Positions 40,500 to 57,854 of a stretch of DNA of 64,000 nucleotides are shown here, one piece after another; positions within the stretch are counted from its first letter, which is position 1, and every line of letters starts with the position of its first letter. The notes beneath the pieces are model-generated. The model was not told where the DNA came from and did not search any database. It saw only the letters and a program-made list of their open reading frames with translations. Source of the stretch: Halochromatium roseum (GTDB taxonomy: Bacteria > Pseudomonadota > Gammaproteobacteria > Chromatiales > Chromatiaceae); assembly GCF_016653315.1 (NCBI RefSeq), contig NZ_NHSH01000006.1:62001-126000 (forward strand), in the 5' to 3' direction. The translations under genes and the position numbers were made by a program.

Positions 40500-40543
40500 T
40501 GTTAAGTTTTGTTGACATTTTATCGCGTCAAGCTAAACTGACA
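40500..40543 (+). promoter_or_regulatory. pucBA promoter with PpsR/CrtJ-type operator doublet (40676 pair)
   Basis: Sites TGTTAAGTTTTGTTGACA (40500-40517) and CGTCAAGCTAAACTGACA (40526-40543), 26 bp apart. The -35 is TTGACA (40512-40517) and the -10 TAAACT (40534-40539), spacer 16. It is 132 bp before pucB. Confidence 0.82.
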
Positions 40544-40675: not shown

Positions 40676-40819
40676 ATGTCAGAAGACAAGCACCCCTCGG
40701 GCCTCACCCCCGAGCAAGCCAAAGAGTTTCATGAACAATTTAAGATCACATACACCGCCTATGTCGGCATCGCCGCGATCGCACACCTGATGGTGATGAT
40801 CTGGAAACCTTGGTTCTGA
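40676..40819 (+). CDS. pucB: LH2 antenna beta polypeptide, divergent copy
   Basis: 47 residues, MSEDKHPSGLTPEQAKEFHE to MVMIWKPWF. The conserved histidines are in EFHEQ and IAHLMV. It differs strongly from the three other beta copies of the window (FKITYTAYVGIAAIA instead of WKHGTWSWVMIASVV), so it may belong to a spectrally different LH2. It is preceded by AGGAGAC and followed 13 bp later by pucA. Confidence 0.93.
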   Translation: MSEDKHPSGLTPEQAKEFHEQFKITYTAYVGIAAIAHLMVMIWKPWF

Positions 40820-41141: not shown

Positions 41142-42518
41142 ATGCACCTGCACCCCGCCACTGACCCCGTGACGCCTCCCAACCAGGTCGTCACCAAACC
41201 GCCGACCTTATCAGCCTTTGCATCCCTGCCGCCGTTGTTCCGTCGCGATCTTCTCAGCTTGTTCGCGCGGGCCTCGCAGTCGCCGCTCGTTCGTCTTGAC
41301 TATCTCGGCCTCCGCCTGTTTCAGCTCAATGATCCCGCGCTGATTCGACAGGTGCTGTTGGACAAAGAGCGACGTTATCGCAAGGGCCGCCTCATGCGAC
41401 GGCTCGGTGCGGTGACTGGCGAAGGTCTACTGATCAACGACGGCGAACGCTGGAAGAAGCATCGCCGTCTAGCGAATCCGTCTATGTCTGGCCGTCGCCT
41501 GACGGGGTATGCGCCGGCAATGGCCGAATCGGCTCGCCTCCTGGTCGAGCGTTGGCGAGCCCTGCCAGCGGGACAGCCGGTCGACCTGATAGCGGAGATC
41601 TCCCGCACCACCCTGATCGCCTTACTGCGGACGCTTTTTGGCATCGACTACGACGCGCGCTACGCAGATGTCAGCGAAGTCATTCATCGCCTGCTTGATG
41701 CTCTCGTACAACGCGGGAGCAGCCTCCTCGCAGCGCCGCTGAGTTGGCCGACGCCGTCCAACCTCGCCTTCCGGCGCAAGATCTCCGAGGCCGAAATGAT
41801 CCTGGCGCGCATTATCGACAGCCGCCGCCGCTATCTAGACGACGCTGATGATCCGAGCGATCTGCTTGGCCAATGGCTTCGCCAGCGCGAGCAAGACCCC
41901 GAGCACTTCACCCCGGAAGAGATGCGCGACGAACTCATGACCATGCTCATCGCTGGTCATCATTCGCTCGCCATCGCACTGAGCTGGGCACTGTGGGAGA
42001 TCGCCGGTGACTCAGACCTGCAACAAGGACTCCACACAGAGGTGGACGCGCTAGCGCAGGCGCCAACCGACGCCAACGCCCTGCAGACCCTGCCGTTGAC
42101 CCAAGGCACCTTCCTCGAGGCGCTACGTCTTTATCCACAGCCACCGATCCTGCTCCGTGACGCCCTCAGCGACCATGTCCTTGGCGGTTACCGCATCCGC
42201 GCTGGCGATCAGCTCATCATCAACATCCTCGCCATCCACCACGACCCGCAGCTGTGGCCGGAGCCACATCGTTTCCGGGCCGATCGCTATCCGAACATCA
42301 ATCCAGATCATCTGATGCAGGCGCATCATCTGGGCTTTGGAGGTGGACCGCGAAGCTGTATCGGACGGCGCTTCGCCCTGATCGAGGGCACCCTACTCCT
42401 CGCCCATCTCCTGCGCGGACTGCAGCTCGATCGGGCTATCCCGGGTCCGATCGCGCCTCGCTTTGCCGGCATGATGGTGCCTTCGGCGCCGTTGCTGCTG
42501 CATGTAACCCCAAGGTGA
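41142..42518 (+). CDS. Cytochrome P450 with an atypical I-helix
   Basis: 458 residues, no membrane anchor. The heme signature is FGGGPRSCIGRRFAL with Cys406; the ExxR motif is E326-ALR. The LRLYPQPPILLRDALSDHVL region and the general pattern resemble CYP175/CYP97-like carotenoid hydroxylases, which is only a hint. The oxygen-activation motif normally AGxET(T/S) reads A271-G-H-H-S-L, so the usual acid and threonine are replaced by His and Ser. It lies 75 bp after pucA and overlaps the next gene by 4 bases (GTGA). A role in modifying a carotenoid or another pigment is inferred from context. Confidence 0.9.
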   Translation: MHLHPATDPVTPPNQVVTKPPTLSAFASLPPLFRRDLLSLFARASQSPLVRLDYLGLRLFQLNDPALIRQVLLDKERRYRKGRLMRRLGAVTGEGLLINDGERWKKHRRLANPSMSGRRLTGYAPAMAESARLLVERWRALPAGQPVDLIAEISRTTLIALLRTLFGIDYDARYADVSEVIHRLLDALVQRGSSLLAAPLSWPTPSNLAFRRKISEAEMILARIIDSRRRYLDDADDPSDLLGQWLRQREQDPEHFTPEEMRDELMTMLIAGHHSLAIALSWALWEIAGDSDLQQGLHTEVDALAQAPTDANALQTLPLTQGTFLEALRLYPQPPILLRDALSDHVLGGYRIRAGDQLIINILAIHHDPQLWPEPHRFRADRYPNINPDHLMQAHHLGFGGGPRSCIGRRFALIEGTLLLAHLLRGLQLDRAIPGPIAPRFAGMMVPSAPLLLHVTPR

Positions 42519-43435
42519 ACAAGGCAGCCAAGGTCGATACTCAAAGCCCTGGCGGCGCGGTGCCGGTCGCGCCGACGCTCGACGGCGTCAGCCGCACCCT
42601 ACTGATCCCACTGCTCGCCCGCGCCGAGGCCCAGTCGCTTTGGCCAGGGGTTGCATTCGATGACGCCGCGGCGCGTCGCCTGACGGCACAGCTTGCAGTC
42701 GATCGCGCCGAGCTGGGATCAGACCCCTTCCCGATGCGGCTCTGCATCAGCCGCTCAATTGCGATTGAGGCGGCACTCAATCGGTTATTGAGCACGCCCA
42801 TCGAGCGCACGCTGGTGCTGATCGCCTGTGGTCTCGATACCCTGCCTGTCCGGCTTGACGCATCACTGGCGCCAGCACAACGGGCGCGCCTGCGCCACTG
42901 GGTCTGTGCCGACTTGCCGCCGGTCATGGCGCTACGCGACCAGCTCCTGCCAGCCTCGGCGCAGATTCGGCACGTCTGTGCGTCCCTGCCCGACCAGCTC
43001 GATGAGATCGCCGCCGCCCTCGACGAGACGCGGCCAGTGTTTATCCTGGAAGGGGTACTACCCTACCTCGATGCCGAACAGGTTGCAGACTGCCTCGCCG
43101 CACTTGGCAGACTCGCGCCCGCCGGGGCCGATCTCCTGATCGATGGCTACCACCCAGCCCTGCTCGCCTTCTCGCGGCTTGGCAACACCTTTCGGCGGAT
43201 GCGCACTCAATTCCGCTTTGGCATCGCCGACCCGCGCGATTACGCCAAGATGGCCGCGCGCATCCAGGTTCATGCTCAGCACGATCTACTGCGTCCCCTG
43301 CCCTGGCGACACCGCAAGCGCGCCTGGCTGCCATCGCTCGTCGCTAGCGGCAAGCCGCTCGCGACCCTAACCCAGCTCGAACTCAGACCGAGCACCGAGG
43401 ATGCCATCTTCCTTCAACGCCGCGGCATCCGATAG
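42515..43435 (+). CDS. SAM-dependent methyltransferase, LCM/PPM1 family
   Basis: 306 residues from GTG at 42515, overlapping the P450 stop codon. Family markers are RSIAIEAALNRLL-type N-terminal helix, the SAM motif LVLIACGLDTLPVRL near residue 105, and FILEGVLPYLDAEQV. LCM-family enzymes methylate carboxylates or hydroxyls of proteins, polyketides and mycolate-like compounds. The coupling with a P450 suggests oxidation followed by methylation of the same compound. It converges with crtC, and the two coding ends overlap by 22 bp. The substrate is unknown. Confidence 0.85.
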   Translation: MNKAAKVDTQSPGGAVPVAPTLDGVSRTLLIPLLARAEAQSLWPGVAFDDAAARRLTAQLAVDRAELGSDPFPMRLCISRSIAIEAALNRLLSTPIERTLVLIACGLDTLPVRLDASLAPAQRARLRHWVCADLPPVMALRDQLLPASAQIRHVCASLPDQLDEIAAALDETRPVFILEGVLPYLDAEQVADCLAALGRLAPAGADLLIDGYHPALLAFSRLGNTFRRMRTQFRFGIADPRDYAKMAARIQVHAQHDLLRPLPWRHRKRAWLPSLVASGKPLATLTQLELRPSTEDAIFLQRRGIR

Positions 43436-44481
43436 GGCAACAAATGCTGGACCCAAGCCGAGCGGAAGCGATCGAGCGATAGGCTCTCATGCACGGCCTC
43501 GATCGGGCGGCCCTGCAGGTGTGACGCAATCACCGAGCGGGAATAGAACGGGGTATCTTCGAGGGTCTTGACGACCCGTGGCGGATGCTGAGCATCGGCT
43601 TGACTAGAACGCGGCATGCGCCAGATCGGCGTGCGCGCAAGGCGATGATCCGGCGGCGCCTCAAAATGGCTCAAGCCGCCATCCGCACCGAAGTGGAGCC
43701 CAAGCGAGAGCCTGTCTCCCTCCCGTCGATCGGCATGATAGAGGATCAGACTCTCATCACCACCGAGACTGGCCCGCGACCAATCCCAATAGCGGAAGGC
43801 ATCCTCTAGCGGCTCGTCGCCCCAGTTGCGGTCTAGGTAGGCATGACCAGTCCAGCTGATGGCTGGACGCTCCAGACTGACCTCAACACGGGCACTCGGC
43901 GCGATCGGTCGCCAGCGGTGCCGCCCGGCCTGATCTAGCTCGAAGACCTGCTCATTGATAAAGGTCGGCGTGACCTTGACCTCACCGCGCACGCGCTGCG
44001 GGATCGGCGTGCCGATCTCATCGATCTCCACCCTCAGGGTCCGATCAGCCCCCCAGTGCAGGGCGCTAGGTCCGATCTGCAAGTGCGAGGGACTTTGCGT
44101 GAGTCCGTGCTGACGCCGCTCGGTCATGGTCCAACGCCGCGCTTGGCCGTAGAGACAGACGTTCAGCGAGCAATAATCGCGCGGCTCATCGCGTCCACGC
44201 CGCCGGCCCTTGAAGTAGTAAGGCGAGAAGACGCTGCCGATGAAGGCGATCAGGGTCAGCCCATGGAGACCATCATCACTGAGCGCATCGACATACCACC
44301 AGGCGTAGCCGCGCGCTGGAACCTGAACGCTTAGGTCAGGTCCTTGAGGATCGCCTCCGCCGCCAGGCGCCCCGAGATGGTCGCCATCGGCACCCCCGGC
44401 CCCGGATGCACGCTGCCCCCCGCCAGATAGAGTCCCGCCAGTCGCGAGCGCGCCGCCGAGCGGCTGAACGGCCCCCGCCAT
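43414..44481 (-). CDS. crtC: Carotenoid 1,2-hydratase; start codon uncertain
   Basis: CrtC adds water across the 1,2 double bond of acyclic carotenoid ends. The core is clear: GYAWWYVDALSDDGLHGLTL, IAFIGSVFSPYYFKGRRRGR, SLNVCLYG, ISWTGHAYLDRNWGDEPLED and WDWSRASLGGDESLILYHAD. Other CrtC proteins begin about 15 residues before WWYVD. Here that point falls at or inside the end of the upstream crtD paralogue, and I find no ATG, GTG or TTG between its stop (44331) and the conserved core. The nearest ATG in frame is at 44481, giving 355 residues and a 151-bp overlap. The frame itself stays open to 44628. Okenone has a methoxy end that needs CrtC and CrtF. Confidence 0.9.
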   Translation of the reverse strand: MAGAVQPLGGALATGGTLSGGGQRASGAGGADGDHLGAPGGGGDPQGPDLSVQVPARGYAWWYVDALSDDGLHGLTLIAFIGSVFSPYYFKGRRRGRDEPRDYCSLNVCLYGQARRWTMTERRQHGLTQSPSHLQIGPSALHWGADRTLRVEIDEIGTPIPQRVRGEVKVTPTFINEQVFELDQAGRHRWRPIAPSARVEVSLERPAISWTGHAYLDRNWGDEPLEDAFRYWDWSRASLGGDESLILYHADRREGDRLSLGLHFGADGGLSHFEAPPDHRLARTPIWRMPRSSQADAQHPPRVVKTLEDTPFYSRSVIASHLQGRPIEAVHESLSLDRFRSAWVQHLLPYRMPRR

Positions 44482-45806
44482 CCATGCGAGGTGCGGCCGT
44501 AGAGCGCCCCCCCAGTGGCCGGAAACAGGCGCTCGAACTCCGTCGGCGTCGTGATGACCCGACGCTCCGGATTGAGGTCGGTCCTGAGGCCACAGCGGCG
44601 CAACAGGTTGAAGGTCTGCTCCTCGCATTGCTCGATCTCTTCGCTAGTAAAAGGTTTGGTGTCGCCCCGCGCGGGCGCATTGACGAGGCACAACAGCCGC
44701 TCCGGCCCCGCGACCTCGGCATCGTCATCGCGATCCTGTGCGCAGACATAGACCGTCGGCTCCCTGGGCAGCTCACCACGCCCAAAGATGGCCTCGAACT
44801 CCTCTGCATAGTTGCGGCAAAAAAACACATTGTGGCGCACCAACGGGAAGCCACTGGTCTTGGCATGAACGCTGAAGGTCACTGCCGATAATGAGCGCGC
44901 GGAGCGTGGATGCGCCGGGGTCGCGCGGCGCGCTGCCGCCCCAAAGGCCCCAGCGGACAGGGCCGCGACATCGGCGTTACAGAGCACGGCATCCGCCTGG
45001 ATACGCTCGCCGCTCTCAAGCTGCACGCCAACGACGCGCTTGCGCTCGACGAGGATCTCCTGCACGCCGGCCTGATAACGCAGCTCAACGCCTTGCTCCT
45101 GCGCAAGCGCGGCACAGGCCTTAGGCAACTGATGGATACCCCCATCGACGGTCCAGACCCCAGCCTGCTCCACATGCGCGACAATCCCGAGCGTTGGCGG
45201 CGCGTGGAACGGCGAGGAACCGACATAGGTGGCATAACGGCCGAACAGCTGGCGCAGACGCGGATCAGGGAAGAAGCGGCCCAAGTCCTGCCAGAGGGTC
45301 GAGTAGGGCTTCAGACGCGCCACCGGAATCAGGCCAGAATCGAGCACCAGCGAGAGCGGGGTCGGCTCCGCGAGCTGGATGAAGGCATGCTCCAAGGTGC
45401 GGTACATATCGCTGGCACGCGCGCAGAAGGCGCGAAACAGACGCGCCTGCTCGGCACCAGCAAAATCGCCGATCGCCTCGGCCGAGCGATCGATATCGGT
45501 ATAGAGGTCGAGCCGCTCATCCTCACTCCAAGCATGGCGAGCCAAGACCTCGACCGGATGCAGGCTGAGGTAATCATCGAGCCTGGCTCCAGCCGCGGCG
45601 AAGAGCTCCTCGAACACCCAGCGCATGGTCACCACGGTCGGCCCTGAATCGATCCGTGCACCGGCGACTTGGACCTCACGCATCTTGCCGCCCGGATAGC
45701 CTGAGCGCTCAAGTAGGGTCACCCTGAGACCCTGGGCGGCGATCCTGATCGCGGCGGCCAGACCGCCAATCCCAGCGCCAATGACAACAACGTGCGGCTC
45801 AGCCAT
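44331..45806 (-). CDS. CrtD-type carotenoid desaturase/ketolase, paralogue 1
   Basis: 491 residues of the phytoene desaturase family. It has the FAD motif VVVIGAGIGGLAAAIRIAAQ, the CrtD-like RYATYVGSSPFHAPPTL, and a C-terminal FAD segment LYLAGGSVHPGPGVPMATIS. In okenone producers two such CrtD paralogues are known, CruO (C-4 ketolase) and CruS (3,4-desaturase and C-2 ketolase). I cannot decide which this is. The close overlap with crtC, which acts on the same acyclic end, slightly favours the CruS role. A good ribosome binding site (AGGGAG) precedes the ATG. Confidence 0.88.
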   Translation of the reverse strand: MAEPHVVVIGAGIGGLAAAIRIAAQGLRVTLLERSGYPGGKMREVQVAGARIDSGPTVVTMRWVFEELFAAAGARLDDYLSLHPVEVLARHAWSEDERLDLYTDIDRSAEAIGDFAGAEQARLFRAFCARASDMYRTLEHAFIQLAEPTPLSLVLDSGLIPVARLKPYSTLWQDLGRFFPDPRLRQLFGRYATYVGSSPFHAPPTLGIVAHVEQAGVWTVDGGIHQLPKACAALAQEQGVELRYQAGVQEILVERKRVVGVQLESGERIQADAVLCNADVAALSAGAFGAAARRATPAHPRSARSLSAVTFSVHAKTSGFPLVRHNVFFCRNYAEEFEAIFGRGELPREPTVYVCAQDRDDDAEVAGPERLLCLVNAPARGDTKPFTSEEIEQCEEQTFNLLRRCGLRTDLNPERRVITTPTEFERLFPATGGALYGRTSHGWRGPFSRSAARSRLAGLYLAGGSVHPGPGVPMATISGRLAAEAILKDLT

Positions 45807-45927
45807 CGGCTCCCTGGGACCTGAGGCAGGCGCGAGCCGAGACCATCAGCACTGCGATGAGAAGGACGCAGTGCTGAACAGGATAGCGGCTGGCGCGATT
45901 GTGGGAATGACTCAACAACGGTCTCAA

Positions 45928-47418
45928 TTAGAGGCTTTTCAGCACCATATCCGCCGCCAGGCGCCCGGAGATCGATGCCATCGGGATACCCGGGCCTGGG
46001 TGCGCGCTACCACCAGCGGTAAACAACTGCTCGATCTTGGTCACCGCGCCAGGACGATCGAACGAACCCCACCAACCATGATTGACGCGCCCAAAGACCG
46101 CCCCACCAGAGGCTGGATAGGCACGCTCGAAATGGGCCGGCGTCGTCACCGCAATGTCTTCGCGCTCGGCGAGCGTCAGCCCGCACTGTTGGAGCAAGGC
46201 GGTCACCTGCTCGCCACAGCGGCCTATCTCTTCATCGGAGAGAACCTGAGAGTCACCCCGCGAGGGCGCATTGACCACGATCAACATTCGCTCGCGCTCG
46301 GCTGGCTCCGGCGCCGAGGGATCACCGCGATCCTGCGCACAGAGGTAGACGGTCGGATGGGCGGGGAGTCGTAGATCCTCGAAGATCGCCTTGAACTCAT
46401 CCGCATAGTCGCGCGGGAAGAAGACGTTATGATACTGCATCGGAAACCCGACCGGGCGCGCCAGCAGATTCCAGGTCACCACCGAATGGGAGCGCTTCTC
46501 AGGCGGAATCGGCGGCACCGCCCGCTTGGCTTGCTCGCCGAACAGACCCGCACCCAGCGCGGCCGCATCCGCATTACAGATCACAGCATCGGCTGCAAGC
46601 TGCTCGCCATTTTCCAAGCGCACGCCACGAGCGCGCCCGCCTTCAACCAGGATCTCGGCCACAGCCGTACCATAGTTCAGCTCAACACCCTTCTCGACCG
46701 CCAGCTCCGCCAGTGCCTCGGGCAAGCGATGGATGCCGCCTTCCACCGCATGTACACCGCGGCTTTCGACATCGGCCACCAGCATCAGGGTCGCCGGGGC
46801 ATGGTAAGGGGAGGCGCCGACGTAAGTCGCATAGCGGCCAAACAGCTGCCGCAGGCGCGGGTCCTTGAAGTAGCTGCCGAGCGCTTGCCAGAGCGTGAAC
46901 ACGGCCTTGATCCGCATCAGCTCACCCAGCCCGTTCCAGCCGAAGCGCGCGAAGATGGTCACCGGCGTCGGCTGCTGCGACTGGATGAAGGGCACGTCTA
47001 AGGCTGCATAGACGCGCTTGGCATGGGCGGCGAAGCGGCGAAAACCATCCGCCTCCTTGGCCCCGGCAAACTCAGCGATGGCCTGCGCGGAGCGTTCATG
47101 TTCACCGAACAGATCCAGGCGCTCGGTCTCACTCCAGGCATGGCGCGCCAGCACCTCCGCCTGATGCAGTTTGACCCGTTCACCGAGGTCAGCACCGGCC
47201 TCACGAAAGATCTGCTCGAAGACCCACGGCATCGTCAGCACCGTCGGGCCCGTATAGAAGGATTGATCGCCAACGTGCTGCTCGCGCAGCTTGCCACCGG
47301 GATGATGACCACGCTCGAGGACTCTGACATCAAGGCCGTTCAAGGCGAGCTTCAAAGCCGCACTCAAACCGCCCATCCCGGCACCGATGACAATGACCTG
47401 TTTCTTGCGCGACGGCAT
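45928..47418 (-). CDS. CrtD-type carotenoid desaturase/ketolase, paralogue 2
   Basis: 496 residues, clearly paralogous to the 44331 protein along its whole length. FAD motif VIVIGAGMGGLSAALKLALN; GRYATYVGASPYHAPATLML; final LFTAGGSAHPGPGIPMASIS. It starts 37 bp after a PpsR-type site doublet at 47455-47498, so it probably heads the operon paralogue 2 - paralogue 1 - crtC. Like its neighbour it should be CruO or CruS in an okenone pathway, or a true CrtD. It is not a CrtI by position and pairing, though that cannot be excluded. Confidence 0.88.
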   Translation of the reverse strand: MPSRKKQVIVIGAGMGGLSAALKLALNGLDVRVLERGHHPGGKLREQHVGDQSFYTGPTVLTMPWVFEQIFREAGADLGERVKLHQAEVLARHAWSETERLDLFGEHERSAQAIAEFAGAKEADGFRRFAAHAKRVYAALDVPFIQSQQPTPVTIFARFGWNGLGELMRIKAVFTLWQALGSYFKDPRLRQLFGRYATYVGASPYHAPATLMLVADVESRGVHAVEGGIHRLPEALAELAVEKGVELNYGTAVAEILVEGGRARGVRLENGEQLAADAVICNADAAALGAGLFGEQAKRAVPPIPPEKRSHSVVTWNLLARPVGFPMQYHNVFFPRDYADEFKAIFEDLRLPAHPTVYLCAQDRGDPSAPEPAERERMLIVVNAPSRGDSQVLSDEEIGRCGEQVTALLQQCGLTLAEREDIAVTTPAHFERAYPASGGAVFGRVNHGWWGSFDRPGAVTKIEQLFTAGGSAHPGPGIPMASISGRLAADMVLKSL

Positions 47419-47639: not shown

Positions 47640-48098
47640 ATGAAGTATACCGCTAGACGTACCTGGCCCGAAAAATCCAAATCCTGGGAATACCTGGGTG
47701 AATCCGACAGTCTTGAAGACTTCGCCCTCGCCTTCGCCACCGACAAGGCACTCCCGGTCGACACCGAATTCGTCGTTATCGAGAAGGCTGGCGCCGAATC
47801 CGAGATCGAGTTCTTTAAGGTGACGCGAACCTCTCCTTACGGCCTCGTCACCGCTGCACCTCGGGTCGAGAGCGAGACGGGCTCAAGCAGCACCGCCGAC
47901 ACGGCGCCCGCTGCTGCCAAAGATGAGCAAACCGACAACGACGGCGGTGACGATAACTATGGTGGAGTCGAGGCCATTGCTGGAGCTTGGCGCGGCGTCA
48001 TCGCCAACATCTTGATGTTCGTCAAGGCTGGCGGGGCGGCCTTCCTCTTCTTTTTGGCCGCGATCTTTCTTGCTAAATGGCTCTTCAACGCCTGGTGA
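47640..48098 (+). CDS. Tail-anchored protein of unknown function in the photosynthesis cluster
   Basis: 152 residues. I do not recognise the family. Residues 1-75 look like a compact beta-rich domain (KYTARRTWPEKSKSWEYLGE, VDTEFVVIEKAGAESEIEFF). Residues about 76-110 are acidic and low complexity (SETGSSSTADTAPAAAKDEQ). A single membrane helix ends the chain (AAFLFFLAAIFLAKWLFNAW). It stands between a PpsR-type doublet and a pucBA pair, so an assembly or anchoring role in the photosynthetic membrane is a reasonable guess. GAGGAG lies 11 bases before the ATG. Confidence 0.8.
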   Translation: MKYTARRTWPEKSKSWEYLGESDSLEDFALAFATDKALPVDTEFVVIEKAGAESEIEFFKVTRTSPYGLVTAAPRVESETGSSSTADTAPAAAKDEQTDNDGGDDNYGGVEAIAGAWRGVIANILMFVKAGGAAFLFFLAAIFLAKWLFNAW

Positions 48099-49038: not shown

Positions 49039-49629
49039 TTAGGCTTGTGCGAGCCCTTGCGCTCGATGCCGCATCAGCAGCGTACAGCACACAGCACCCA
49101 CGAAGATCGCGCTCCCCGTCGCCGCCAAACCGATCAGGTTCTCCGCGACCCCTAAACTCGGGTCATAATCGCGATACCAGGCAACGCCAAGCACGAGTAC
49201 TGCGCCGATCAGGTTGGAGCGCCCTGGCGTCAAACTCTGACGCCAGGCACTCGGCATGGTATGCAGAGAAAAGTGCAGGAATGCCAGTAGCGCCCCAAGC
49301 AGATAGAGGCTGTTGATCGCCCCATGCTGCAGAGGGCCCCATAGCTCGCGCTCGCTACCGAAGAAGGGGATCGCGCAGCCAAGCGCCAGCAGAACCAAGG
49401 CGATGGTGACGAAGCCACGCAGACAGCGCGAGCGAAAGGCATCGACATAGCACATCATCAGCATGGTCGCGCCCAGATAAATGGCCGCCTTGGTGATCAC
49501 TGGCGCATCAATAACGCCTAGACTGAATGACTTGGGCACCGCGTAGACGCCGAGCAAGATCGCCGATGCGGCGATAACGAAGACCAGGACGAACGGAATA
49601 GGCCGACAATCGGCCGCGGATTCTGGCAT
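49039..49629 (-). CDS. Multi-span membrane protein of unknown function next to crtY
   Basis: 196 residues from the ATG at 49629. About six membrane helices are visible (VLVFVIAASAILLGVYAVP, AAIYLGATMLMMCYVDAF, GFVTIALVLLALGCAIPFF, SLYLLGALLAFLHFSLHTM, SNLIGAVLVLGVAWYRD, LIGLAATGSAIFVGAVCCTL). It has scattered histidines (LQHGAINS, FLHFSLH) but not the His boxes of CrtW or CrtR ketolases and hydroxylases. I do not recognise the family. It follows crtY by 83 bp and probably shares its transcript, which points to carotenoid or pigment-membrane work. Confidence 0.75.
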   Translation of the reverse strand: MPESAADCRPIPFVLVFVIAASAILLGVYAVPKSFSLGVIDAPVITKAAIYLGATMLMMCYVDAFRSRCLRGFVTIALVLLALGCAIPFFGSERELWGPLQHGAINSLYLLGALLAFLHFSLHTMPSAWRQSLTPGRSNLIGAVLVLGVAWYRDYDPSLGVAENLIGLAATGSAIFVGAVCCTLLMRHRAQGLAQA

Positions 49630-49712
49630 GACAGACACTCTCTCGTGATGGGTGTAGAACTGCGCCACAACTGCTGAGCACAGTCGCTCGGTAAAGACTG
49701 ATGAAGGATTGA

Positions 49713-50885
49713 CTAGGGCTGTTCTGGGGTTCGCGCCCGGCGTCCCCAGCCTTTTGGCGTCCAGGGGGCACCGACATACATGATCCGCCACCAATCGACC
49801 AAGGTCGTCTCCATCGCGAAGAAGCGATGAATCACCGCGTCTGGCAGCAAATAGAAGCGCTCCATCAAGCGCCGCCGCTTATCATCATGGAACCAGCGGA
49901 ACATGAGCAGATTCAGCGCCGCCAAGAAGATCGACTGGAAGCGCAGGTAGCGCGTCAAGCGCCGCCAATCCCGGCCAAAGAGGTCATCGATCGGCGTCTT
50001 CGCGAGATGCTCGGCTAAGCGCGAAGCCGCGGCCAATGAATAGCCTGTGCTCGGATTGAACCAGCCCCCGGCATAGCCCGCTAGGATCGGCGCCTCGGAC
50101 TTAGGATGAAAGGTGCTGAGCGCCGGCATCGGCAAGACACCAACCTCGGTGCGCAAGACCGCGTCAATCTCCAAACCAAACGCAGGCGCCTCAGCCAAAA
50201 TCGCGGCGCTGATCGCTTCGACATCCAGATCCGGGCGATTGGAGAAATAGGTATCTTCGATCAGCACCCGATCCTCAGCGAAGGGCAGGATATAGAAGAA
50301 GCGAAAGCCATCACGCTGCTGACAACGTGAATCCATCAGGATCGGCACTCTCGTCGGCGCAGCACGGCTGAGACGACATTCAAGACCCACGAATTTCTGA
50401 TATCCCCCACCTGGACTGTTAGCCCCTTGCTCTGGTCCACGCGCATCGATCACCACACGCCCGTGCAACCGCGAGCCATCGGCAAGCTCAACCTCTTTCG
50501 CCCGCACCTGGCGCACATCGGTCTCGAGCCGCAGCTCAATCCGCGGTGAGGCATCGGCAACAGCGCGCACGACCCGATCGAGGTGCTCAGAGCTCAGCGA
50601 GCGATAGGCGCCCTTGACCCAACGCGAGGATGCTTTGAAAAACAGCTGATAGCCCGGCCACTCATACTCGATTAGGGGGCTGGCCCAAGCGAAGGCTGAG
50701 GCTGGCAGATCGCGCGCTTGGAAAGACCAGATATGGTTGCCACCGATGGCGGCGTCGCGCTCAAGCAAGATGATCGATGCATCTGGCCGCCGCTCGGCGA
50801 GGGCCAGCAGGATGAGGGCATTTTGGAGGCCACCGCCGACAAGCAAATAATCGGCGTCGACCCGCGGTTGTTCCTGGGTGGTCAT
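49713..50885 (-). CDS. crtY: Lycopene beta-cyclase
   Basis: 390 residues of the CrtY family. The N-terminal FAD motif is YLLVGGGLQNALILLALAER; further diagnostic segments are IGGNHIWSF, YQKFVGLECRLS, PILMDSRCQQRDGFRFFYIL, VLIEDTYFS and GYAGGWFNPSTGYSLAAASR. It forms the beta ring at one end of lycopene, which CrtU then turns into the aromatic chi ring of okenone. Purple bacteria with spirilloxanthin lack this gene. ATG at 50885. Confidence 0.94.
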   Translation of the reverse strand: MTTQEQPRVDADYLLVGGGLQNALILLALAERRPDASIILLERDAAIGGNHIWSFQARDLPASAFAWASPLIEYEWPGYQLFFKASSRWVKGAYRSLSSEHLDRVVRAVADASPRIELRLETDVRQVRAKEVELADGSRLHGRVVIDARGPEQGANSPGGGYQKFVGLECRLSRAAPTRVPILMDSRCQQRDGFRFFYILPFAEDRVLIEDTYFSNRPDLDVEAISAAILAEAPAFGLEIDAVLRTEVGVLPMPALSTFHPKSEAPILAGYAGGWFNPSTGYSLAAASRLAEHLAKTPIDDLFGRDWRRLTRYLRFQSIFLAALNLLMFRWFHDDKRRRLMERFYLLPDAVIHRFFAMETTLVDWWRIMYVGAPWTPKGWGRRARTPEQP

Positions 50886-51214
50886 GGCTATGATCGCGGG
50901 ATTCTAGAGCGGAGAGAAGGGGAAACAGGGAAGGAAACACGAATCGCAAGCTCAGCCCGGACTCCAACCGGCCGACGCCCACGACGGCCTAGATTACCAT
51001 GCTAACGACAGGCTAGTAGCAACCCTGGCGCCCCCGCCGATGGTTGCTTGATGACCGTCAGCGCCCACTGCACAAGCTGTCGCTAGACTTCCAGACAGTC
51101 CTTATCCCATCCCTCCCATTCCTGTCCGGGCTCGGATCATGCCTGCATGCGGCGCACGTCGGCCGTGGCATCGCCTCCCATCCCGGACGCTGCCTTGTCG
51201 TTCCGGAGAACAGC
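50886..51214. other. Divergent control region between crtY and crtU
   Basis: No gene is supported. AGCAACC and GGTTGCT (51018-51048) form a 7-bp inverted repeat around 17 bases. I find no TGT-N12-ACA site here, unlike the other photosynthesis promoters of the window. Confidence 0.5.
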
Positions 51215-53119
51215 ATGCACCGTCGCCACTTCATTCGAAATGTTGGGCTCATCACCGTTACCGGCGCCGCGCTTGGCGGTGCTGGCTTGTACGCTATCCA
51301 GCCGCGGCGCTCTACCCTACCCTTTGCCTCCGACCAGAATGCAACGCTGCCACTGAGCCCAAGCACCAAAAAGCGGGTGGTGGTGGTCGGCGGCGGGCTC
51401 GCCGGCATTGCCGCGAGCTATGAGCTTGCCAAGCGTGGCTTTGACGTCACCCTGGTCGAGCGCTCCAGCAATCTTGGCGGGCGGCTCACCGGTTGGGATG
51501 TCGACGTCAACGGCGAGACCATGGCCACCGAGCACGGCTTTCATGGCTTCTTCAATCAGTACTACAACCTCAACGGACTACTCGCCGAGAACGGTCTGCG
51601 TGACAACTTCAAGCCGGTCTTGGATTACCCGGTCATCTTCAAAGACCCGGCCAAAGGCACCGAGAGCTTTACCAACACCACAACCCTATTCCCCTTCAAC
51701 CTCTTCGCCGTCGTCAATCAGGCCAAGTCGGTCTCACTGCTCGACTTCAATAACCCGACCGGCCGGCTCTACGAGGTGATGCGCTACGATCCAGACAAGA
51801 CCTTCGCGCGCCTCGACGACCTCGACTTCAAGACCTTCTGCGAGCGCGTCAACAAGCCGATGGTCGACACCATCATCGAGCCCTTTGCGCACACATCCTT
51901 CAACCAGTTTCATCAGTACTCGACCGCCGAGGGCATCAAGTTCTTCCATTTCTTCTTTCTCGGCAATCCCGATGGCATGGGCTACGACCAAACCATCGAC
52001 GATGCCATGACCTCGGTGATCACCCCCTTGACCAACGCCCTCACCGAGCTGGGTGTGCGGGTCACCACCGGCGCCGAGGTCGATCGCTTAGTCGCCCAAG
52101 ACGGCCGCATCAGCAAGGTCATCCTCAAGCGTCCTGGGGCCATTCTCGGCGCCGAGCACAGCATCGATGCCGCCGCTATCGGCAGCGACTGGACCCCGTT
52201 CTGGAATGGCTCCAACCTCTACTACGCCAAACGCGACGCGCAGGGTGAGATCCATGGCGTTTCTGGACGTTGCACCCACATGGGCTGCCCGGTTGGTCTC
52301 GACGCCGCCACCGGTGGCTTCGCCTGCCCCTGCCATGGCGCCAAGTACGATAGCAACGGCGTTCCCACTGCTGGGCCGACCATCGTGCCGCTAGTCGAGC
52401 TCGACGCCACCCCCACACCCGAGGGTCAGATCAAGCTCAGCGCACGCCCCGAGCAATCGAACATCGAGCTAGAAACGGACTATGTGGTACTCGCCTGCGA
52501 TGTCCCCGGCGTCAAGGCCATCATCGCCCAGTCCGAGCTCCCGAGTCCCGAGCTGGTGAGCAGCGTTGAGCGCCTCGGCGTCGCTGATCCGTACATCGTC
52601 TGGCGACTCTGGCTCGACCGCGAATGCCCTCCGATGGCCGTGCCCTTCTATACCGTCAGCGGCTGGCGCTACACCGACTCGATCGCGATCTACTCGCAGA
52701 TGCAACCCGAGTCGGAAGACTGGGCGCGTCGCCACCAGGGCTCGATCATCGAGCTACACGCCTATGCCGTCGAGCCGGAGAACGTCATCGACGAGGCCGA
52801 GATCAAACGCATCATGCGCGCCGAACTCGACGAGCTAATCCCCGAGCTGAAGGGCGCCAAGGTCGTCTACGACATCTACACGATGCAGGAGAACTTCCCC
52901 CGCTGGGCGCCAGGCGACTATGCCGGCCGCCCTGGCGTGCGGACGCCAATCGACAACCTCTTCCTCGCCGGCGACTACCTGCGACTCGAGGTGCCGGCTA
53001 ACCTGATGGAGGCGGCAACCATGACCGGCCGTATAGCGGCCAATCAGGTTCTGGTCGCCGAAGGGCTGCGCGAGAATCCGATCCCAACCGTCGACCCCAA
53101 GGGGCCGCTCGCCTTGTAG
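51215..53119 (+). CDS. crtU: Carotene desaturase/methyltransferase with Rieske domain
   Basis: 634 residues. CrtU desaturates the beta ring and shifts a methyl group, producing an aromatic ring. The FAD fold is KRVVVVGGGLAGIAASYELA (near residue 55), and GFHGFFNQYYNLNGLLAE is typical of CrtU. A Rieske [2Fe-2S] site is inserted: C353-T-H355 and C371-P-C-H374. The C-terminal FAD segment is FLAGDYLRLEVPANLMEAAT. The start MHRRHFIRNVG, followed by a hydrophobic stretch, resembles a twin-arginine signal. Start chosen by GGAG 7 bases upstream of 51215. Confidence 0.93.
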   Translation: MHRRHFIRNVGLITVTGAALGGAGLYAIQPRRSTLPFASDQNATLPLSPSTKKRVVVVGGGLAGIAASYELAKRGFDVTLVERSSNLGGRLTGWDVDVNGETMATEHGFHGFFNQYYNLNGLLAENGLRDNFKPVLDYPVIFKDPAKGTESFTNTTTLFPFNLFAVVNQAKSVSLLDFNNPTGRLYEVMRYDPDKTFARLDDLDFKTFCERVNKPMVDTIIEPFAHTSFNQFHQYSTAEGIKFFHFFFLGNPDGMGYDQTIDDAMTSVITPLTNALTELGVRVTTGAEVDRLVAQDGRISKVILKRPGAILGAEHSIDAAAIGSDWTPFWNGSNLYYAKRDAQGEIHGVSGRCTHMGCPVGLDAATGGFACPCHGAKYDSNGVPTAGPTIVPLVELDATPTPEGQIKLSARPEQSNIELETDYVVLACDVPGVKAIIAQSELPSPELVSSVERLGVADPYIVWRLWLDRECPPMAVPFYTVSGWRYTDSIAIYSQMQPESEDWARRHQGSIIELHAYAVEPENVIDEAEIKRIMRAELDELIPELKGAKVVYDIYTMQENFPRWAPGDYAGRPGVRTPIDNLFLAGDYLRLEVPANLMEAATMTGRIAANQVLVAEGLRENPIPTVDPKGPLAL

Positions 53120-55683: not shown

Positions 55684-56871
55684 TCAAGCAGCCTTGGCGA
55701 CGATGAGCCGGGTTTGTAGCGGCCGGCGCGTGCGGACAAAACGAATCTGGTCGAATCCAGCCGCTTGCAGCATGGCACGATGCTCGCGCGGCGGACGCGT
55801 TCGCCCGCTGCCCATCGCCAGCAGATAGAGGCCAAAATAGGCATCGCCGACGGGTTCTACCCCAGGCGTCTCCGACATCGGCTCGGTAATGATCAGGGTG
55901 CCACCAGGCTCAAGCGCGGCCCGCACGGCACGCAAGATGGTCATCGCGCCGTCGTCGTTATGGTCCAGGATCACGCGCACCAAGGAAATGATATCGGCTC
56001 CACGCGGGAGCGGATCGACCTTGACGTTACCGCCAAAGACCTCAGCACGATTTTCGATGCCGGCGGCGCGGAAATGCTCACGCGCGCGTTCGACGACCGC
56101 AGGCAGATCAAACAGACGCAACTGCAGATGCGGCCAGCGCTGGGCGGCCTGCAGCAAGAACCGACCTTCACCACCACCAACGTCCATCAAGCAGCGATAA
56201 CCGTTCAGCGGGAAGGCATCGAGCGTGTCCTCTGCGACGAAACCGCTCGACGCAGACATCAACAGACTGTATTCAGCGACCCGCTCATCACCATCGGCCG
56301 CCGGGTCCGCCGAGCCCGCATAGGACCAGTAGCGTCCAAGCTCGGTCTCGCTCAGTTCGCCTCGAAACAGCGCCAGCGGATCATCGAGATCGTGATACAG
56401 CATGCGATGATGGCGCACCATGGCGGCAATCCCTGGATTGCCCGGCATCGCAATCCCCAGCTTGCCAAGCCCGTAACGGCCATTGCCGCGCCGCTCTAGC
56501 AGGTCGATCGCCACTGCCGCGCGCAAGAAGCGATCGGCTGCGGCAGGCGTCATGCCCATCTTGCCGGCCAACTCCTCAGCGCTCCGCGGGCCATCGGCAA
56601 GCTCATCAAAGAGGCCAAGCTCGACACAGCCATAGAGAATCTGGGAATAGACGAAGCCAGCCGTGATATCAAAGAGTGCGCGGGCGCGCTTTGATGCCTC
56701 AAACTTGGTCAACGGAAAATCCGCCGCCCAACGCTGAAAGCTCGGACTGGCGAGCTTGCGATCGCGCCAAACGCGCCAACGCTCAAGGAATGGAAGCTGC
56801 AACTGGATACCTTCGCGAGTTGAACCGAGCGACAGAAAAGAAGGGTTTGCAAGTACGCTGAGCCACGACAA
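55684..56871 (-). CDS. crtF: Hydroxycarotenoid O-methyltransferase
   Basis: 395 residues, SAM-dependent methyltransferase of the CrtF family. It methylates the 1-hydroxy group made by CrtC, giving the methoxy end found in okenone and spirilloxanthin. Visible: LASPSFQRWAADFPLTKFEA, FDITAGFVYSQILYGCVELG (dimer domain), the SAM motif LMDVGGGEGRFLLQAAQRWP, and LVRVILDHNDDGAMTILRAV. It is transcribed toward pucC. Confidence 0.94.
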   Translation of the reverse strand: MSWLSVLANPSFLSLGSTREGIQLQLPFLERWRVWRDRKLASPSFQRWAADFPLTKFEASKRARALFDITAGFVYSQILYGCVELGLFDELADGPRSAEELAGKMGMTPAAADRFLRAAVAIDLLERRGNGRYGLGKLGIAMPGNPGIAAMVRHHRMLYHDLDDPLALFRGELSETELGRYWSYAGSADPAADGDERVAEYSLLMSASSGFVAEDTLDAFPLNGYRCLMDVGGGEGRFLLQAAQRWPHLQLRLFDLPAVVERAREHFRAAGIENRAEVFGGNVKVDPLPRGADIISLVRVILDHNDDGAMTILRAVRAALEPGGTLIITEPMSETPGVEPVGDAYFGLYLLAMGSGRTRPPREHRAMLQAAGFDQIRFVRTRRPLQTRLIVAKAA

Positions 56872-57285
56872 ACAACTGCTACAAGACGCAGCTGTGACGA
56901 CACTCAGGGTAAGCGCACCATCGAGTCGCCGATTTTACATGGCAGCGCCGTGCATCAACAATTGTTGACCATCAATGGATGCCGAAAACACTCACCTTCT
57001 TCATCCATACCATGGCCAGCAACAGCGCTGAGCCACACTCAAGCTCGCTCGAGTCATCCGGTCTCCCAGCCGCGCGAGGCAAGAAAGACGACGAAGCTTG
57101 CACAGCTGACAGCACGCAGCAATCGTGTCGCGACGACGCCCCATAACGAAACAACGCCCATTAAGGGCGTTGTTCATCACCTTCCCGGTGTCATGATCCT
57201 TGGCTTGGTGCCAAAGTGGACGATCGATGATCTCGTCCAGCGAGCGGTTCAACCTGAGGTGAACCGCCCTGCATCACGCATGATC
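56872..57285. other. Intergenic region between crtF and pucA
   Basis: No gene is supported. It contains the terminator of the 57286 pucA at 57150-57174 and flanking sequence homologous to the 3' flank of the 48575 pucA. No TGT-N12-ACA site is apparent before crtF. Confidence 0.55.
57150..57174 (-). terminator. Terminator after the third close pucBA pair
   Basis: AACAACGCCC-attaa-GGGCGTTGTT is a perfect 10-bp stem with a 5-base loop. On the minus strand it is followed by TCGTT. It is homologous to the terminator at 48956-48981. Confidence 0.85.
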
Positions 57286-57552
57286 TTATTGGACCTGCGC
57301 GATCTGCTGGCCTTGAACCTGCTCGATGACGGCGGCGGAGCGAGCGTCCACAGCGGCTTGAGCAGAATCCTTGAAGCCGTAGCCTGGCAGGCTCAGTGCA
57401 TAACTGTGGACCAGCCACATCTGCACGAACAGGATGGCAAAGAAAGGAACCATCCAAGTCGCTGGGTTAATGACGGTCCAGATCTTCCAGTCTTCTTCTG
57501 GATGATCGGGCTTTGCAATGGTCGGGTCAGCCATCAGATAAGGAACTTGCAT
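57286..57552 (-). CDS. pucA: LH2 antenna alpha polypeptide (mosaic Tyr/Phe variant)
   Basis: 88 residues. Up to GYGFKD it is identical to the 53555 copy, and from there on (SAQAAVDARSAAVIEQVQGQ) it matches the 48575 copy with four substitutions. Its 3' flank and terminator also match those of the 48575 copy. The protein is therefore a mosaic, best explained by recombination or gene conversion among the puc loci. Confidence 0.94.
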   Translation of the reverse strand: MQVPYLMADPTIAKPDHPEEDWKIWTVINPATWMVPFFAILFVQMWLVHSYALSLPGYGFKDSAQAAVDARSAAVIEQVQGQQIAQVQ

Positions 57553-57585
57553 GGAATATCTCCTCGTCGAAATTGGACTAGCGGT

Positions 57586-57729
57586 TTAGAACCAGGGTTG
57601 ATAAACCCAGGTCACCACATGAACGACGGAGGCGATCATGACCCAGCTCCAGGTACCATGCTTCCAGTGCTCGTGAAACTCTTTTGCTTGTTCGTCGGTC
57701 AGGCCGGACAGATTTTTGTTTTCAGCCAT
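57586..57729 (-). CDS. pucB: LH2 antenna beta polypeptide
   Basis: 47 residues, MAENKNLSGLTDEQAKEFHE to VTWVYQPWF, one residue different from the 53378 copy. The ribosome binding site and leader are the same as in that copy. The operator doublet lies 125 bp upstream at 57855-57898. Confidence 0.95.
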   Translation of the reverse strand: MAENKNLSGLTDEQAKEFHEHWKHGTWSWVMIASVVHVVTWVYQPWF

Positions 57730-57854
57730 CGAAATAACCTCTCGTGAAGGTCGTTGTTCAGGTGCCGTCCGGCACATCTCTGCGCCGCACTTCGATGTGT
57801 AAAAAAGGATGCATCAGCCCTGGTACAGATGCTGTTGCTCGCTTAATCCACGAG

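What the first reader, a model, noticed from the sequence alone, without database searches (positions are those of the whole stretch)
41142..43435. P450 and LCM-type methyltransferase operon beside pucBA
A P450 and a methyltransferase overlap by 4 bases and follow pucBA by 75 bp, with only a hairpin between. Neither is part of the known okenone or spirilloxanthin routes as I know them. The pair looks like a two-step oxidation and methylation module for a photosynthetic pigment or a linked small molecule, controlled with antenna genes.
Basis: inference. Interest (0 to 1): 0.78.

Follow-up and report, generated by a model that had tools for sequence, protein, structure and literature searches.

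The report
Okenone-linked P450–methyltransferase gene pair
A pair of genes for a heme oxidase and a methylating enzyme sits beside light-antenna genes in purple sulfur bacteria that carry okenone-type pigment genes, and probably adds an oxidised, methyl-capped group to that pigment; its function has not been tested.

Summary
An intact cytochrome P450 (41142-42518) and an LCM-type methyltransferase (42515-43435) overlap by 4 bp, 75 bp behind pucBA, inside a photosynthesis and okenone-type carotenoid cluster. The pair occurs in 8 of 146 family genomes. All 8 are among the 15 with a close homologue of the window's CrtU-type aromatic-ring enzyme; 0 of the 131 others have it. Adding genome contigs gives 11 pair-bearing Chromatiaceae, all CrtU+. 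Seven of 15 CrtU+ genomes lack the pair, so okenone itself should not need it. The P450 clade reaches two MAGs outside the family, both with CrtU-like genes; one also has the methyltransferase, unlinked. In 10 of 11 genomes the pair lies by antenna or puf genes; T. minor has a puc-type dyad before it. Both genes are under purifying selection. Nearest solved P450 relatives include the carotenoid hydroxylases CYP97A3/C1, but the oxygen-activating motif is AGHHS/AGHQS, not AG-x-[ED]-T. Best reading: a methyl of okenone's aromatic end becomes a carboxylate and is capped as methyl ester, a route to "thiothece"-type carboxylic pigments. The chemistry is inferred.

The parts
40512..40531 (+). dyad TTGAC-N10-GTCAA in the pucB promoter region; same motif before bchC and near other photosynthesis genes
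40676..40819 (+). pucB, LH2 beta polypeptide
   Evidence: PF00556
40833..41066 (+). pucA, LH2 alpha polypeptide
   Evidence: PF00556
41101..41130 (+). hairpin between pucA and the P450 gene, no long U-run
41142..42518 (+). cytochrome P450 of a clade found only in CrtU+ genomes so far
41952..41969 (+). codons of the I-helix motif A-G-H-H-S-L (residues 271-276) in place of A-G-x-[ED]-T-x
42357..42359 (+). heme-ligand Cys406 in FGGGPRSCIGRR
42515..43435 (+). LCM-family (leucine carboxyl methyltransferase-like) SAM methyltransferase
43414..44628 (-). context: crtC-like carotenoid 1,2-hydratase, converging on the methyltransferase, ends overlap by 22 bp
   Evidence: NF045922 282 bits, below its cut-off of 400
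44331..47418 (-). context: two CrtD-type enzymes (44331-45806, 45928-47418), by position the cruS and cruO of the okenone route
   Evidence: NF045637 above cut-off; names inferred from gene order in PMC10604819
49713..50885 (-). context: crtY lycopene cyclase
51044..53119 (+). context: CrtU-type aromatic-ring enzyme (amine-oxidase fold with Rieske domain); name inferred from architecture and position, no library used holds a CrtU model that it matched
55684..56871 (-). context: O-methyltransferase, by position crtF, so the 1'-methoxylation probably has its own enzyme

Best explanation
The pair is an aryl-carotenoid tailoring module made together with the LH2/LH1 antenna. The P450 oxidises okenone (or its chi-ring precursor) at the aromatic end, most likely a ring methyl through alcohol and aldehyde to a carboxylate. 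The LCM-type methyltransferase caps that carboxylate as a methyl ester, so that the pigment stays apolar enough for the antenna. If the P450 uses O2, the step would run when cells meet traces of oxygen, as CrtA does for spheroidene. Shown: conserved coupled intact pair, antenna/puf context, co-occurrence with the CrtU-type gene, P450 and LCM folds. Inferred: carotenoid substrate, site, acid and ester product, oxygen dependence.
For: Pair only in CrtU+ genomes: 8 of 15, against 0 of 131 without, of which 41 are pufC+; the three further pair-bearing genomes (T. marina, T. minor, Thiohalocapsa HLSAbin6) are CrtU+ too. Both MAGs outside Chromatiaceae with the P450 (55 and 51% identity) have CrtU-like, crtB and crtI-type genes together, and one keeps a methyltransferase homologue elsewhere (41% identity, 272 bits). 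By antenna/puf genes in 10 of the 11 (HLSAbin6's contig is too short to tell), in four different arrangements. Nearest solved relatives of the P450 include CYP97A3 and CYP97C1, carotenoid hydroxylases. The methyltransferase fold is that of ML2640c, LCMT1 and PPM1, the last two leucine carboxyl methyltransferases. A separate crtF-type gene is present. Precedents: a chi-ring methyl is oxidised to COOH by CruH in synechoxanthin, and thiothece-484 of Thiocystis gelatinosa is listed as a carboxylic carotenoid (PMC8342508 passages); a P450-dependent monooxygenase is the last step of aryl-carotenoid synthesis in Brevibacterium (title in a reference list); T. marina contains okenone (PMC8767323 passage).
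Against: Seven of 15 CrtU+ genomes lack the pair. In the window's genus, G139, T. minor and T. marina the pair and crtU lie within about 9-22 kb on one contig, so co-inheritance may be linkage; in Thiohalocapsa crtU is on another contig, but all 5 of 5 genomes of that genus have it, so it cannot vary with the pair. In the group of the two MAGs CrtU-like genes are common (4 of 5), so co-occurrence there is weak. Identity to CYP97 (24-27%) is no higher than to BM3 (24-26%), CYP175A1 (27-28%) or CYP184A1 (30%); the best sequence match is CYP184A1, not known to me as a carotenoid enzyme; the tree puts CYP97A3 near the clade only weakly, with a CYP102-type and another P450 in the same open fork (88/89, long branches). 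The clade lacks the usual acid-alcohol pair, so ordinary O2 chemistry is uncertain. The LCM match is modest, below the TIGR00027 cut-off, and sequence search of the PDB found no homologue at E <= 0.01. The CrtU name itself is inferred. No carboxylated okenone from a pair-bearing strain is known to me.
Confidence: 0.4

Rival explanations
1. Carotenoid tailoring, but elsewhere or with other chemistry: ring or chain hydroxylation (or C-19/C-20 oxidation) followed by O-methylation to a methoxy carotenoid, not a methyl ester.
For: CYP97 relatives hydroxylate rings; Chromatiaceae make chain-oxidised carotenoids whose enzymes are unknown (PMC8342508 and PMC10604819 passages).
Against: The partner enzyme has the carboxyl-methyltransferase fold; the pair tracks the aromatic-ring enzyme.
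Confidence: 0.25
2. The pair modifies a non-carotenoid: bacteriochlorophyll, a terpenoid or another small molecule whose synthesis is simply induced with the antenna.
For: P450 and LCM families are broad; the best PDB sequence match is CYP184A1, solved also with oleic acid.
Against: Pair absent from all 41 pufC+ genomes without the CrtU-type gene, which should make bacteriochlorophyll too; P450 clade found again in two MAGs outside the family that have CrtU-like genes.
Confidence: 0.2
3. Linked passenger: the pair rides in the photosynthesis cluster during transfers and has a function unrelated to pigments.
For: Window genus and G139 share P450 and CrtU at 90-96% identity although the other members of their genera in the sample lack both, as if the whole cluster moved.
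Against: Re-placed several times but always by antenna/puf genes where it can be judged; in Thiohalocapsa crtU is on another contig (distance unknown); T. minor has the dyad at -159 without pucBA.
Confidence: 0.1
4. The P450 is not a classical O2 monooxygenase: with His/Gln-Ser in place of Glu/Asp-Thr it works with peroxide or does an O2-independent rearrangement, fitting an anoxic host. (Can hold together with the carotenoid readings.)
For: AGHHSL/AGHQSL in all 13 distinct members of the 51-100% identity clade, while 27 of 27 other P450 rows in which the motif could be read keep [ED]-T (8 further weak matches unread, one misread); interrupting the acid-alcohol pair impedes normal compound I formation (PMC9112060 passages).
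Against: Ser may replace Thr in proton delivery (recalled); ExxR, heme loop and Cys intact; purple sulfur bacteria are important at oxic-anoxic interfaces (PMC8767323 passage).
Confidence: 0.15

Closest known systems
CYP97A3 / CYP97C1 (plant carotene ring hydroxylases)
   Same: Among the best solved relatives by sequence (CYP97A3 E 1e-63) and fold (Z 40-42); shared RD-LMTMLIAGH and RLYPQPP-L-R stretches
   Different: 24-27% identical in the structural alignment; CYP97A3 I-helix AGHETS against AGHHSL; plant plastid; no methyltransferase partner (recalled)
CYP175A1 (Thermus carotene hydroxylase, in a crt cluster)
   Same: Bacterial P450 in a carotenoid cluster; fold Z 39
   Different: In another open part of the tree on a long branch, keeps AGHET, not with antenna genes
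Aryl-carotenoid P450 step of Brevibacterium (Dufosse & De Echanove 2005)
   Same: P450-dependent last step on an aromatic-ring carotenoid (title seen)
   Different: Cheese actinobacterium; no gene compared here
CruH of synechoxanthin synthesis
   Same: Proposed same conversion, chi-ring methyl to carboxyl (PMC8342508 passage)
   Different: Not a P450 as I recall; no homology tested
LCMT1 / PPM1 / TIGR00027-type methyltransferases (ML2640c, Rv0731c)
   Same: Fold Z 18.2-22.5 over 221-251 residues in the first 15 rows; GLDT and LEG-LPYL stretches, LCM motifs as I recall
   Different: 12-22% identity; protein C-terminus as substrate in LCMT1/PPM1; below the TIGR00027 cut-off (32 of 93.6 bits)
CrtA (spheroidene monooxygenase of Rhodobacter)
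   Same: Works like: late O2-linked change of an antenna carotenoid in a purple bacterium
   Different: Not a P450 enzyme (PMC10604819 passage), makes a 2-keto group

Membership tests
Cytochrome P450 superfamily | PF00067 match, Cys heme loop FxxGxRxCxG, ExxR | tested here: met
   238 bits; heme-loop Cys and EALR invariant in the 8 aligned
Cytochrome P450 superfamily | I-helix acid-alcohol pair [ED]-T | tested here: not met
   H/Q-S in all 13 distinct clade members; not an absolute requirement of the superfamily
CYP97 carotenoid hydroxylases | at least 40% identity (family naming rule, recalled) | tested here: not met
   24-27% in structural alignment
CYP97 carotenoid hydroxylases | forms one clade with CYP97 | tested here: inconclusive
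   same open fork, support 88/89, long branches
LCM methyltransferases (PF04072) | Pfam gathering score | tested here: met
   27.8 against 22.3 bits; NP119 homologue 38.2
LCM methyltransferases (PF04072) | fold of LCMT1/PPM1/ML2640c | tested here: met
   Z 22.5 to 18.2 for the first 15 rows, next 15.3
LCM methyltransferases (PF04072) | methylates a carboxylate | not testable with these tools
   needs enzyme assay
TIGR00027 methyltransferases | NCBIfam cut-off | tested here: not met
   32.3 of 93.55 bits
Okenone biosynthesis set (crtC, crtF, crtU, crtY, cruO) | present in every CrtU+ genome | tested here: not met
   pair in 8 of 15
Antenna-coregulated genes | beside antenna/puf genes in the same orientation, or with an operator of their kind | tested here: met
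   10 of the 11 pair-bearing Chromatiaceae; HLSAbin6 contig too short to tell
Antenna-coregulated genes | cotranscription | not testable with these tools
   needs RNA

The most novel reading that the evidence does not exclude
The pair is the unidentified genetic basis of the carboxylic, probably carbomethoxy, aryl keto-carotenoids described in 1972 from Thiocystis (Thiothece) gelatinosa. A P450 clade with a rebuilt oxygen-activation site turns a ring methyl of okenone into COOH, and a carboxyl methyltransferase new to carotenoid metabolism esterifies it, as an antenna-coupled switch of the pigment. That thiothece pigments are methyl esters on the ring end is recalled; the 1972 paper was not read, and whether T. 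gelatinosa has the pair was not tested.
Probability: 0.27. Interest if true: 0.78.

Novelty: new variant of a known kind. Interest (0 to 1): 0.6.

Why it matters
Okenone's fossil, okenane, is used as a biomarker for purple sulfur bacteria in sulfidic, sunlit ancient water. A dedicated, antenna-linked enzyme pair that further modifies aromatic carotenoids would mean that part of this pigment class carries an unrecognised group, and could give genes to carboxylic carotenoids described in 1972. It also offers a P450 clade whose conserved oxygen-activation residues are replaced in organisms that mostly live without oxygen. All of this can be tested with culturable type strains.

Tried and rejected
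(1) In-frame TGA in the four Thiohalocapsa methyltransferases (flagged): rejected; the frames are open from start to stop. The same flag on T. halophila CrtU: the frame is open over 645 residues. (2) Methyltransferase as a replacement for CrtF: rejected as needless, a PF00891 gene is in the cluster. (3) Viral carriage of the P450: no relative confirmed in viral contigs; in plasmids 643 records match, all below 60% identity, about 30-33% in the ten rows shown. (4) Sequence search of the PDB with the methyltransferase: no match at E <= 0.01, two weak ones at E <= 10 that I take as spurious, none for the NP119 copy at E <= 1; the fold search gave the relatives. (5) The search around the two MAGs reached only 5 genomes. 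(6) Literature: one search gave three papers, none with the two terms in title or abstract; nothing on such a pair showed in the listings; one search found no paper. The okenone pathway paper (PMC3207450) is not held. PMC5574413 and PMC4882832 do not hold the word thiothece. (7) CYP97 as sister group: not supported enough to claim. (8) Naming the dyad a PpsR/CrtJ site: not claimed, no regulator was tested. Not done: a genome-wide search of the two MAGs for photosynthesis genes; a test of T. gelatinosa. Limits: depends on two exact peptide patterns and misses relatives without them; at most 7 candidates per genome were scored and the match list is cut, though the 15 strong ones stand far above the next (at least 395 against 35 bits), and G127's is a fragment at a contig edge.
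Full report
WHAT IS THERE. The window lies at 62001-126000 of contig C6 of a 5.17-Mb genome. Around the finding it holds pufLMC, bchZYXC, pucBA, a crtC-like gene (282 bits, below the NCBIfam cut-off of 400), two CrtD-type enzymes, crtY, a Rieske-containing amine-oxidase-type enzyme that I call CrtU, pucC and an O-methyltransferase in the crtF position. The names crtU, cruO, cruS and crtF rest on architecture and on the okenone gene order in PMC10604819; no CrtU model was matched in the libraries searched. The P450 and methyltransferase are both intact and overlap by 4 bp. pucA ends 75 bp before the P450 start, and the gap holds a stable hairpin. The P450 is the only match to PF00067 in the genome at E <= 0.001.

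CONSERVATION AND DISTRIBUTION. In 146 genomes of the family, P450 matches above 530 bits occur in 8, and methyltransferase matches above 260 bits in the same 8. The other 16 genomes with a P450 match score at most 200 bits, the other 10 with a methyltransferase match at most 38. CrtU matches of at least 395 bits occur in 15 genomes (one, G127, a fragment at a contig edge), the next being 35 bits; pufC in 56, the 15 among them. The 8 all fall in the 15 (hypergeometric 1.5e-9 among 146, 4.5e-6 among the 56). These numbers ignore relatedness. In the window's genus the three genomes with crtU are the three with the pair (of 6 in the sample), and in genus g23 the one with crtU is the one with the pair (of 5). 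In g38 all 5 have crtU and 4 have the pair. In the first two groups the genes lie in one cluster, so transfer of the block could explain the match. In g38 pair and crtU are on different contigs. Seven of the 15 lack the pair (G027, G038, G091, G107, G114, G127, G142).

The genome-contig scan gave 20 loci. Eleven have 51-94% identity: Halochromatium sp. A10, Thiocystis minor, Lamprobacter modestohalophilus, Thiocapsa marina, five Thiohalocapsa genomes and two MAGs labelled Deltaproteobacteria. The other nine have at most 37%. With the window and G139 that makes 11 pair-bearing Chromatiaceae. All have CrtU: eight, and T. marina, T. minor and HLSAbin6, which also repeats T. halophila.

OUTSIDE CHROMATIACEAE. 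The two MAGs carry the P450 without a neighbouring methyltransferase. Both have carotenoid clusters with a CrtU-like gene (30-37% identical to the window's in two stretches flanking its Rieske part): in M3003 it is fused to a lycopene cyclase domain and sits near crtB, a crtI-type gene and a PF04240 (CruF-like) gene; in NP119 it is next to a polyprenyl synthase-phytoene synthase (crtE-crtB) fusion. NP119 has a methyltransferase homologue on another contig (41% identity, 272 bits), M3003 only weak matches. In the five genomes that the tool holds for that group, the CrtU-like gene is in 4 and the P450 clade in 2, both of them with the CrtU-like gene. This agrees with the aryl-carotenoid reading but is weak evidence by itself. 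Whether these MAGs have photosynthesis genes elsewhere was not searched. In 398 genomes drawn from the window's phylum, no methyltransferase other than the window's own scores above 117 bits (508 for its own; 11 of 398 have E <= 1e-15).

REGULATORY CONTEXT. Window, A10 and Lamprobacter: dyad, pucBA, 74-77 bp, P450-MT. G139 and T. marina: another pucBA lies about 300 and 500 bp upstream. Thiohalocapsa (four genomes): pufLMC, an antenna pair, then about 370-410 bp, P450-MT. T. minor: no antenna gene seen within 840 bp upstream, pufLMC downstream, and the perfect dyad TTGAC-N10-GTCAA 159 bp before the P450. HLSAbin6 cannot be judged, its contig being 3.2 kb. The dyad with at most one mismatch occurs 7 times in the window against 1.08 expected (0 of 100 shuffles reach 7; one of the seven is outside the photosynthesis genes). 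It recurs before bchC, puf, puc and crtE-type genes in several related clusters, but no copy was found by the pair in the Thiohalocapsa stretches. Cotranscription is inferred.

THE P450. Its clade of 12 rows is monophyletic (100/100) on a long stem, with the two MAG sequences outside the Chromatiaceae ones. Heme loop and ExxR are intact. In all 13 distinct members (19 rows) the I-helix reads AGHHSL, or AGHQSL in Thiohalocapsa ML1. Of 26 other rows, 17 read AG-x-[ED]-T, one reading was spurious and 8 could not be read; 10 of 10 paralogues from the MAG group read ET. The closest solved structures are CYP97C1 (Z 42.2), CYP184A1 (41.4) and CYP97A3 (40.5), then BM3 (39.6) and CYP175A1 (39.0), on a model with mean pLDDT 79. 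By sequence they are CYP184A1 (E 2.4e-65) and CYP97A3 (1.1e-63). CYP97 and CYP175A1 act on carotenoid rings, but identity to CYP97 is no higher than to BM3, CYP175A1 or CYP184A1, and the tree does not settle the nearest relative. The reading of the acid-alcohol pair follows passages of PMC9112060.

THE METHYLTRANSFERASE. It has an LCM domain by Pfam and, on a model with mean pLDDT 80, ML2640c (Z 22.5), Rv0731c, LCMT1 and PPM1 as best matches, with a step down to 15.3 after TYW4. LCMT1 and PPM1 methylate carboxylates, which is why a methyl ester is preferred here over a methyl ether. This is inference.

MECHANISM. Okenone's described route does not use the pair (PMC10604819 passages; PMC5944118 passages), and 7 of 15 CrtU+ genomes lack it, so it should act late. 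The likeliest order is P450 oxidation at the aromatic end to a carboxylate, then capping by the methyltransferase. Precedent for a chi-ring methyl becoming COOH is synechoxanthin with CruH. Carboxylic thiothece-484 is reported from Thiocystis gelatinosa (PMC8342508 passages and reference list). That it is a methyl ester on the ring end is my recollection. T. marina contains okenone (PMC8767323 passage); okenone in the other named strains is recalled or inferred from crtU.

LITERATURE. Passages only were read in PMC10604819, PMC5944118, PMC8342508, PMC8767323, PMC9112060, PMC6212597, PMC7880592, PMC11041744, PMC8549741 and PMC8232776. In PMC6579920 one reference entry was seen. PMC5574413 and PMC4882832 were only term-searched. 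The listings showed no paper on such a pair.

VERDICT. A real, conserved, antenna-linked enzyme pair that tracks aromatic-carotenoid genes. Most likely a late okenone-tailoring module (0.4 for the specific acid-ester chemistry; about 0.65 for some carotenoid substrate, adding the first rival).

Noticed in passing
window 49039-49794 (-): 251-aa ORF without Pfam or NCBIfam match, overlapping the crtY gene and 79-87% identical in A10, Lamprobacter and G139: an unnamed conserved ORF of the okenone cluster.
   Followed up: no
window 47640-48098 (+): 152-aa ORF without NCBIfam match, conserved upstream of the cruO-type gene (51-97% identity in four genomes, T. minor included).
   Followed up: no
window 33067, 38765, 40512, 48197, 53221, 57867: Dyad close to TGACA-N8-TGTCA enriched in the photosynthesis cluster (7 window hits with at most one mismatch against 1.08 expected, six of them here) and in related clusters; likely a shared operator, regulator unknown.
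   Followed up: partly
window 56950-57747 (+): Probably spurious ORF whose matches in related clusters lie antisense to antenna genes; several extra puc-type pairs lie around the okenone genes there.
   Followed up: no
L121:11813-14143 (-): Lycopene-cyclase domain fused to a CrtU-like desaturase in the MAG M3003; NP119 (L120:5523-7484) has a crtE-crtB-type fusion.
   Followed up: partly
L119:9027-10670: In NP119 the methyltransferase homologue lies tail-to-tail with a YwiC/UbiA-like protein.
   Followed up: no
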